This document shows positions 38,036-41,426 of a stretch of DNA of 64,000 nt, piece by piece (position 1 is the first letter of the stretch; every line of letters begins with the position of its first letter). The notes below the pieces were generated by a model. The model was not told the DNA's origin, searched no databases, and worked only from the letters and a program-made list of their open reading frames with translations. The position numbers and the translations under genes were made by a program. This stretch comes from Fuerstiella sp. (lineage in GTDB: Bacteria; Planctomycetota; Planctomycetia; Planctomycetales; Planctomycetaceae). The stretch lies in NCBI GenBank assembly GCA_022447225.1, contig JAKVAZ010000015.1:39853-103852 (forward strand). The letters run 5' to 3'.

Positions 38036-38394
38036 CGCGGGTCCGTATCAGCCAGTTTCCGCTGTGGTTAAAGCCGGCAACAAAATCTGAATTCTGAGTG
38101 TATGGAATGAACAGGTTCGGATCACAGCCACAAACGTCGCGGCAAATAACAGCAAATCCGGAGAATTGCAGCAGAATGTCCGCGGACAAGGTAAATCTCC
38201 ATCGAAAGCGACCCTGTCGAGCAAACTGCTGAACTTCAGAGGATATCCGCCCAATGCCGACTCTTGCAGCCTGGTTCAGAAGGTTCTCAGGAATGTAGCT
38301 CATTTCCCTGATTGGCGCGAAAAAATCGCCTATGCCCCGGCCCTTTACCAACATGGCCTGGGTAACCATTGGTTCTCATGGTGAACCGGCGGCA
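38036..38394 (-). other. Region upstream of yidC
   Basis: 359 nt between the yidC start and the terminator at 38395. No rnpA or rpmH coding sequence is found on the minus strand. An open frame at 37917-38369 overlaps yidC out of frame and is not credible. The yidC promoter presumably lies here. Confidence 0.4.
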
Positions 38395-38427
38395 TAAAAA
38401 AAGCCCGGCCGCCGTCGGGCCGGGCTT
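38395..38427 (-). terminator. Intrinsic terminator of the 61-aa small gene
   Basis: Read on the minus strand, AAGCCCGGCC (38427-38418) pairs perfectly with GGCCGGGCTT (38410-38401) around a 7-nt loop. A T-run (38402-38395 as A on the plus strand) follows directly. It is a textbook rho-independent terminator, 43 nt past the small gene's stop codon. Confidence 0.9.
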
Positions 38428-38470
38428 GTCGTGGACCCTCACAGGGTCATTTCACGCCATTCATTCTGTA

Positions 38471-38656
38471 TCATCCGGGATCGACAGATTCCTGCCTGGA
38501 GCTCCCTGCATTCTGTTCCTCGATCATTCGATGGATCGTAAGAATATCCAGGCCTCCGACAAAGCTGTCGCCGTTCCGTGGGGGGGTTCGCCGAACTTCA
38601 TAAGATTCATCGGAGCCTTGAGCGCCCACGTGTGCATTCGTTGATGATTGATCCAT
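38471..38656 (-). CDS. 61-aa conserved-looking small protein
   Basis: ATG 38656 is preceded by AAGGTGGTGAG, one of the strongest ribosome binding sites in the window, directly abutting the start. The stop is followed by a perfect terminator. The protein is hydrophilic: an Asp/Ser/Asn-rich start (MDQSSTNAHVGAQGSDESYE), a basic/proline centre (VRRTPPRNGDSF), then a helix-like segment (GGLDILTIHRMIEEQNA) and a polar tail. There is no signal peptide, membrane helix or Cys. The family is not recognised. A longer frame to 38719 exists but lacks an SD site. It is monocistronic, and 1354 nt without genes lie upstream. A small regulator or adaptor is possible (inference). Confidence 0.72.
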   Translation of the reverse strand: MDQSSTNAHVGAQGSDESYEVRRTPPRNGDSFVGGLDILTIHRMIEEQNAGSSRQESVDPG

Positions 38657-40010
38657 CTCACCACCTTTCCCAAAAGCCCTGATTGAAATCAAAGTTCTGT
38701 TTTCGTTTGCAGTCGTCACCTCAGAATGCCGTTTTGAAAGGTCCGAATTCTGTTACTGGCGGAGCAAGCAAAGGTCTCCAGGGCAACCCACGTCTCAGTG
38801 CGTCCGGCAGAAATCGCGACGGCCCACTCCTTCACCAGTGGTGACATTCTTCTTTTTATTCGCCTGCTACGTTTTATTCATTCCCTATATTTGAAATTCA
38901 GAAAACTGCTGATGCAGGCCGGTACGTGTGTCAGCGTTATCATCGGCAAAAAACGCTGGTCTCGTGCAAAACTCTGCCCAAAGGCCTCAAACCCGAAAAC
39001 ACAATAAGCGTCCGAGACAAACATCAGAGGAATACAATCTATACACGGTATGCGACTCCGGAAATACCCCGAAATCAACCTGCTCTGTATTCTGTTGCCA
39101 ACGCATTGAATCTCCGTGAGATTTGATTGTGTGCCTGATCGATTTTTCCGTTATCGGAAACCCCACTACGGCAACAGACCTTTCCCGTACAGACAGTTGT
39201 CTTCTTTGAGAGGTGGAAATCCGCGACTTATTTAAAAATCATTTGATGACAACAATTTAGAGTCATTTCAAAATGAGAAGCTGACGACGGTTGAGAAATC
39301 CAGTATCGCGGTCGCTGAGACACACAAGGATTTGATATCTGCAGGTCCGGAATTAATCAGTCACACGGATCGAAAAAGGAGACAATCAACCCAAGTGTCC
39401 GGCTTCCGTGACGCGAGGGCCAAATTTTCGAAATGGTTCACTGCCTGACAGGCAGGTGCATCCCTGATGTTGATCGTGTCACGGTCAGTCAGCAGTGTGA
39501 AACAGAAGGCCACCAAGACGGCATGCACGTGTTCCCTCCTGCCGTCCTCGCACGCACCATCTCAAGCCGAAGTCAATCGAAGGAATCATGTGTTTGCTGA
39601 CTCCCGACACAACCACCTTCGTAAGTCACCGCAACACACTTCCCTAAGCACATGCATGTAGTTCCATCGCCTCAGTCATAATCAAGCGAAAGTAAACCGG
39701 TCGACATCAGACAATTGCCTTCGGGAAACTCCCACCGAAGAAGCCGTTTGACCGTTCACGACCAGAACAATGGTCTGAACACTTGCTCAAAGCTGCTGAC
39801 AGTGTGTTAGATACACAATGGCCCACCAGGTTCACATATTTTGTGTATTTTCCAAGTTTCACTTGATCTTTGGCAACCGTGATTCTCCAATACAGTCCGG
39901 GTCATTTACTAAGCAGGTAAAAACGGACGTTTACCAGGGGACAACTCGTCAATCGTCAGCTTTCGGCACTACGAGTGATGCCAGAGGCTTGTTGTCGCAT
40001 TGACTGAGAA
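38657..40010. other. Longest gene-free stretch in the window
   Basis: 1354 nt between the small gene (-) and the membrane protein (+). Many short open frames exist but none has a start signal plus coding character. Seen structures: an imperfect stem at 39240-39275 (CATTTGATGAC against GTCATTTCAAAATG), a hairpin at 39439-39458 (CACTGCC/GGCAGGTG), and AT-rich tracts at 39225-39275. No DnaA-box cluster, tRNA, tmRNA or RNase P motif was recognised. It should hold two divergent promoters and may hold non-coding RNA or decayed genes. Confidence 0.45.
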
Positions 40011-41426
40011 ATGGTGATGGATTTTCCATTCTTCCAAATGGACGTAGCGCACCCGGCTTGGCTTATTTACGCTTCGTTGCTGGTGCTTACTGTCTTCTTC
40101 CGTTTTCCACGGGTGTTCAGTGTACGTAATCTGGACATCGGACTGATTCTCTCACTTTCCACTGCACTGGTACTGGCCAGCAGCTGGAGTTCATCTGAAT
40201 CAACTGCTGTTCCTGCGAGCGAGCGTGTGGATGAGACCTCTTATGAGTGGTCCTCCATCGTATTGCTATCGCTCTCAATCCTCCTGATTGTACGGTTAAT
40301 CTTCGACGAGAGTCTGACTCGACGACCGCGTCTTAGTCAAAACCTGAATCAGGCCGGACTGACTTTCCTGTGCGTACCGGCCTTCGCACTGCTGATGACA
40401 AGTGTATTCATGGCCGAACCTCCTGGAGGTAATGTCGCCGCTGTGGAGTCCGGAAAAGCACTGTTGAACCGCCAGGCGATCGGCGAGAAGGGAACCCCGG
40501 CCGAAGACGTACAGCCGGCACCAACAGAAACGTTGACCGCCGCGGTAGCGTCTGCCGTTGCCGAACTGTCGGCTGGAATTGACCGTGCATCTGTAAGTGT
40601 TGATTCGGAATCTACATCCATGGAGCAGACGATAGCCTGCGTCCTGGTTGTCCTGGCACACACAATCATCATTGCAGGGTTCGTGAACATTGGAACCAGG
40701 CACTTCAACAGTCTGCAGCTGGGCGTTTCGATGAGTTGCCTCTATCTGCTGCTTCCATGCACGGCATTCAATGTCCACGAACTAAGCCATGTCCTTCCGG
40801 CGGCATGTTTAATCTGGGCCGTGGCCTGTTATCGTCGCCCGGCTATTGCCGGTGTGCTGCTGGGTCTGGCCTGTGGAACATTGTTCTTTGCAGTCTTTCT
40901 ACTGCCGTTGTGGGCAGTGTTCTATGGTCGTCGAGGCAGCCTGAAGTTCGGCATTTCACTCGGAGCGGTGGGTGCACTGGCTCTGCTTGCTGTTGCAATG
41001 ACCTCCTCGAGCACAGATTCATTCATTGCCCGGCTCGTTCATACAGCCAACTGGACTGCGTTCCGTCTGTTTACGGATCAGTTGCCGGTCAGCAGCATGG
41101 GGGTGGGACAGATCTTTCTTCGGATTACACTTGCGGCTGCCTTCTTTGTGATGCTGACAGCAATGACCGTCATTCCTCGTCGAAGGAACCTTGAAAATCT
41201 GCTGGCCAATTCAACAGCACTCGTTGTGGCTGCACAGTTGTGGTATCCGGAAGACATAGGAACGTATGTATTGTGGTATCTACCGTTGCTCATGCTGGTC
41301 ATGTTTCGGCCCCGCCTGGACCGTTTTACAGCACCAGTGAATGAAAACAGCGATTCAGCGACACGCCCCAGACCAGCAACAACCGGTATCGGCGGTTCCC
41401 TGTCCCGTATGACATTGTATCACTAG
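40011..41426 (+). CDS. Polytopic membrane protein of unknown function
   Basis: 471 aa with roughly 10-11 predicted membrane helices (for example AWLIYASLLVLTVFF, IVLLSLSILLIVRLIF, ACVLVVLAHTIIIAGFV, VLLGLACGTLFFAVFLLPLW). A hydrophilic loop at about 140-205 carries a negative, Ala/Glu-rich stretch. The layout recalls glycosyltransferase-87-like or polymerase-like membrane proteins, but no catalytic motif is seen, so no function is assigned. A second ATG two codons in (40017) is an alternative start. It is monocistronic, bounded by gene-free gaps. Confidence 0.75.
   Translation: MVMDFPFFQMDVAHPAWLIYASLLVLTVFFRFPRVFSVRNLDIGLILSLSTALVLASSWSSSESTAVPASERVDETSYEWSSIVLLSLSILLIVRLIFDESLTRRPRLSQNLNQAGLTFLCVPAFALLMTSVFMAEPPGGNVAAVESGKALLNRQAIGEKGTPAEDVQPAPTETLTAAVASAVAELSAGIDRASVSVDSESTSMEQTIACVLVVLAHTIIIAGFVNIGTRHFNSLQLGVSMSCLYLLLPCTAFNVHELSHVLPAACLIWAVACYRRPAIAGVLLGLACGTLFFAVFLLPLWAVFYGRRGSLKFGISLGAVGALALLAVAMTSSSTDSFIARLVHTANWTAFRLFTDQLPVSSMGVGQIFLRITLAAAFFVMLTAMTVIPRRRNLENLLANSTALVVAAQLWYPEDIGTYVLWYLPLLMLVMFRPRLDRFTAPVNENSDSATRPRPATTGIGGSLSRMTLYH

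What the first reader, a model, noticed from the sequence alone, without database searches (positions are those of the whole stretch)
38395..38656. 61-aa small protein with very strong RBS and perfect terminator
The gene sits alone in a 2-kb gap, with one of the best ribosome binding sites in the window and a textbook intrinsic terminator. Both signals are rare here, implying high, independent expression. No family is recognised.
Basis: seen in the sequence. Interest (0 to 1): 0.5.

Follow-up and report, generated by a model that had tools for sequence, protein, structure and literature searches.

The report
Genus-restricted small protein upstream of yidC
A 61-amino-acid protein of unknown function is very probably made from a short gene next to the membrane-insertase gene yidC in one small group of planctomycete bacteria; it looks like a real but ordinary orphan gene.

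Summary
The ORF (38656-38471, minus), its strong Shine-Dalgarno site and the hairpin/T-run terminator (38427-38395) are present as described. A 27-codon core (YEVRRxxPxNGDSFVGGLDILTxHRMI) varies mostly at third codon positions (19 of 29 variable columns). SD and ATG are identical in the nearer relative, and the DNA before the ATG is conserved without a coding pattern, which supports the ATG start there. Weaker points: in the farther relative SD and ATG are missing and the start is unclear; one relative keeps the hairpin without the T-run, and in the other I saw no counterpart. High, independent expression is untested. No Pfam, NCBIfam, PHROGs, PDB-sequence or Rfam match passed threshold, and no convincing homologue turned up in the other 167 family genomes or in class and phylum samples. 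It fails published criteria for yidC-upstream arrest peptides (no membrane segment by hydropathy, conserved part central). Best reading: a genus-restricted soluble small protein, probably acting by binding a partner through its predicted helix.

The parts
38471..38656 (-). 61-aa ORF (ATG start, stop included), acidic (pI 4.6), no transmembrane segment by hydropathy
   Evidence: frame present in G001 and G002
38522..38602 (-). conserved 27-codon core YEVRRTPPRNGDSFVGGLDILTIHRMI (boundaries chosen by eye after aligning)
   Evidence: variable columns by codon position 7/3/19, binomial p = 0.0004 against 1/3
38657..38671 (-). Shine-Dalgarno site GGGAAAGGTGGTGAG just before the ATG; identical in G001, not conserved in G002
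38675..38712 (-). conserved upstream DNA block without a coding pattern; promoter or operator suspected, not shown
   Evidence: up to 22 of 30 columns identical in all three; only one exact match to its pattern in the genome
38395..38427 (-). intrinsic-terminator-like hairpin and T-run

Best explanation
A real, single-copy gene for a 61-aa soluble small protein found only in this genus. It is probably transcribed on its own from a promoter in or near the conserved block at 38675-38712, translated from the strong SD at 38656, and ended at the hairpin at 38427-38401 before yidC. The acidic, variable N-terminus and the tail are probably disordered; the conserved core is predicted to form a turn followed by a helix (residues 38-50), amphipathic by eye, which most likely binds a partner protein. 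Shown by comparison: the coding core, the SD and ATG shared with G001, the place upstream of yidC. Inferred: promoter, termination in the cell, expression level, action by binding. A role in membrane insertion is only guilt by association.
For: Frame present in 3 of 3 genus genomes. Core differences by codon position: 5/2/9 (window-G001, p 0.05), 4/2/16 (window-G002, p 0.0002), 7/2/16 (G001-G002, p 0.002), with 5, 12 and 11 synonymous codons of 27; three-way 7/3/19, p 0.0004. SD and ATG identical in G001. DNA before the ATG is not coding-like: window-G001 1 synonymous and 9 non-synonymous of 22 codons, differences 4/4/2. Terminator. 433 to 460 nt upstream of yidC in all three, though G002 has a different next gene. 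A single significant copy in the genome. Helix 38-50 or 38-51 in both models.
Against: Only three genomes. In G002 no ATG or SD at the homologous place; possible starts are a GTG at the V of YEV and a GTG 30 codons before it. Outside the core the coding signal is weak: third-position p 0.17 between ATG and core and 0.065 in the tail for window-G001, and only 2 of 16 and 4 of 16 residues shared with G002. T-run missing in G001, no counterpart seen in G002. Structure models are of low confidence (mean pLDDT 63.6 and 59.7).
Confidence: 0.72

Rival explanations
1. A yidC-monitoring arrest (leader) peptide: ribosome stalling on the small ORF controls translation of yidC, as for MifM or CliM.
For: Small unannotated ORF upstream of yidC on the same strand in 3 of 3 genus genomes. 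Such uORFs are patchy in distribution, and one group (uA_LPPP, upstream of secA) is reported from Planctomycetota (PMC10987492, passages and section 6 read).
Against: No membrane segment by hydropathy (best 19-aa mean 0.29); the conserved part is central and the C-terminus varies; a terminator-like hairpin and 435 nt lie between it and yidC.
Confidence: 0.06
2. A small RNA ending at the terminator, with the ORF incidental.
For: Strong terminator-like hairpin; G001 keeps a hairpin there.
Against: Core varies at third codon positions; no Rfam match; SD and ATG identical in G001.
Confidence: 0.08
3. A longer protein starting upstream (82 aa from GTG 38719, or from TTG 38692), the SD letters being coding sequence (FGKGGE).
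For: Frame open upstream in all three, and a start-capable codon (TTG/TTG/GTG) at the same aligned place; upstream DNA is conserved. It would explain why G002 lacks the ATG.
Against: Upstream differences are not coding-like in any pair (1 synonymous of 22, 21 and 21 codons); the SD letters are identical in G001 including third positions; weak SD before the aligned GTG in G002 (-3.5 kcal/mol).
Confidence: 0.1
4. A decaying remnant of the metallophosphoesterase gene that usually precedes yidC in this family.
For: Counted by eye, 27 of 34 other-genus family genomes (G003-G036) have that gene just upstream of yidC; in 3 of 3 genus genomes it is on another contig.
Against: No meaningful similarity: best BLASTP E 0.053 against two such proteins, no DNA match with E below 0.10; the core is under coding constraint.
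Confidence: 0.03

Closest known systems
Sec/YidC arrest peptides (MifM, CliM, other yidC uORFs)
   Same: Small unannotated ORF upstream of yidC, narrow distribution
   Different: No membrane segment by hydropathy, no conserved C-terminus, terminator-like hairpin before yidC
Taxonomically restricted (orphan) small proteins of bacteria (general knowledge)
   Same: Short, single copy, no relative found outside one genus, no known domain
   Different: Little sets it apart, except strong expression signals in the window's genome

Membership tests
Sec/YidC arrest peptides (criteria of PMC10987492, section 6) | Small ORF of unknown function upstream of sec or yidC | tested here: met
Sec/YidC arrest peptides (criteria of PMC10987492, section 6) | N-terminal secretion signal or transmembrane sequence | tested here: not met
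   hydropathy only: best 19-aa mean 0.29 (window) and 0.41 (G001); SignalP or TMHMM not available
Sec/YidC arrest peptides (criteria of PMC10987492, section 6) | C-terminal sequence conserved among homologues | tested here: not met
   conserved core is residues 19-45; in the tail 7 of 16 residues shared with G001 and 4 of 16 with G002
Sec/YidC arrest peptides (criteria of PMC10987492, section 6) | Spacer over 30 aa between localisation signal and end of the conserved sequence | tested here: not met
   no signal found, so no spacer can be defined
Sec/YidC arrest peptides (criteria of PMC10987492, section 6) | Translation arrest and control of the downstream gene | not testable with these tools
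   needs toeprinting and a reporter
Orphan small protein | Coding constraint on the frame | tested here: met
   in the core; not significant outside it for window-G001
Orphan small protein | No homologue outside the genus | tested here: met
   family: 3 congeners and one weak match in 170 genomes; class 397 and phylum 392 sampled genomes: G000, G002 and weak matches only; pattern-based scan of genome contigs found 2 congeners; none in viral contigs, phages, plasmids. Sensitivity for so short a protein is limited

The most novel reading that the evidence does not exclude
A gene that arose in this genus at the place where the family's usual neighbour of yidC was lost, and whose soluble product acts on YidC or on its expression.
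Probability: 0.08. Interest if true: 0.5.

Novelty: new member of a known kind. Interest (0 to 1): 0.27.

Why it matters
It adds one comparatively well-supported small-protein gene of a kind that annotation may miss, and gives a simple test case for an orphan gene sitting next to a membrane-insertion gene. On present evidence it changes no general picture.

Tried and rejected
Family searches gave nothing above threshold (Pfam, NCBIfam, PHROGs, PDB sequences); the one Pfam line, DUF3085 at E 0.12 and 13 bits for the G002 protein, is below its cut-off of 25. Weak matches in other genera were read as chance: 26 of 59 genomes had a match at E up to 1, but only the three congeners were better than 0.05. 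The two best profile matches, G633 (E 0.0037) and G432 (E 0.007), cover the variable N-terminus and the first part of the core, not the GGLDILT-HRM part, which G633 shows only in traces. Twenty stretches upstream of yidC in other genera, four of them short because the contig ended, held no relative. The conserved upstream block has one exact match in the genome, one at 2 and six at 3 mismatches, against none for the reversed control pattern; these others were not followed up. An ECF-sigma-like promoter (GGAAC-N16-GTC, recalled motif) can be read in G002's block, but the window and G001 do not keep it, so it is only a lead. No fold search was run because both models had low confidence. PADLOC was not searched. 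Paper searches listed nothing on this gene; I opened two papers, PMC10987492 (passages and section 6) and PMC13183943 (abstract and outline); all others were seen as listings only.

Full report
Observation. The ORF, gap, ribosome site and terminator are as described. On the minus strand the order is small ORF, yidC (60KD_IMP, 38035-35888), mnmE (35708-34212). The SD is among the strongest in the window (30 of 1,998 ATGs as strong). The terminator is the best of four distinct candidates in 64 kb in my scan, although the number of candidates is what shuffles give (likewise).

Conservation. The genus has three held genomes, and all three carry the ORF: 61% identity in G001 and 55% over 44 residues in G002. 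In each the ORF lies upstream of yidC on the same strand, with 435 (window), 433 (G001) and 460 nt (G002) between (from coordinates). G001 shares the window's divergent neighbour; G002 has a different ORF there.

Coding test. In the 27-codon core, whose limits I chose after aligning, 19 of 29 variable columns are third positions (p = 0.0004). Pairwise the signal is clear with G002 (p 0.0002 and 0.002) and marginal between window and G001 (p 0.05); outside the core it is not significant for window-G001 (p 0.17 and 0.065). The block before the ATG is highly conserved as DNA (22 of 30 columns three-way at its best), but its changes are not coding-like. So the core is protein-coding, and the upstream DNA is more likely promoter, operator or leader. 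The exact SD and ATG match in G001 supports the 61-aa start for these two species. In G002 the start is unresolved: SD energies are -1.7 for a CTG, -3.5 for the upstream GTG and -6.5 for the GTG at the V of YEV.

Terminator. G001 keeps a hairpin with a longer stem (13 pairs, against 11 for the window, in the folds) but no T-run. In G002 I saw no counterpart in the alignment and made no dedicated scan. The same hairpin-plus-T pattern occurs nowhere else in the three genomes; this says that the sequence is unique, not that terminators are rare.

Distribution. The profile found, in all 170 held family genomes, the three congeners and one weak match. In samples of 397 class genomes and 392 phylum genomes it found G000, G002 and weak matches (five at E up to 0.05; one at E up to 0.01), which I read as chance. 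The pattern-based scan of the species-genome collection found the two congeners. No match in plasmids, phages or viral contigs. A short, fast-changing protein could be missed.

Mechanism. The protein is acidic (pI 4.6 in the window, 5.6 in G001) and hydrophilic, with no membrane segment by hydropathy. Two models of low confidence agree on a helix over residues 38-50/51; the ten-residue block 41-50 has mean pLDDT 82 and 78. A helix that is amphipathic by eye, in the only conserved part, suggests binding to a partner. The shared place upstream of yidC in three genomes hints at, but does not show, a link with membrane insertion. The arrest-peptide rival misses the signal, C-terminal and spacer criteria.

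Verdict. Very probably a real small-protein gene; orphan, ordinary in kind, partner unknown.

Noticed in passing
window 38240-38313, minus strand: A second block conserved in all three congeners (up to 22 of 30 columns) lies between the terminator and yidC; an apparent one-base indel in G002 argues against coding, so it may be the yidC promoter or leader.
   Followed up: partly
G000:C6:97855-98178 (L065): A metallophosphoesterase gene sits just upstream of yidC in 27 of 34 other-genus family genomes (G003-G036, counted by eye; 6 have it on another contig, 1 gave no yidC match), but on another contig in all three genus genomes. G007, the best-scoring YidC outside the genus, also lacks it there.
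   Followed up: partly
window 40011-41426, plus strand: Divergent 471-aa protein, hydrophobic by eye, without a Pfam match at E up to 0.001; present at the same place in G001 but not seen in the stretch of G002 examined.
   Followed up: no
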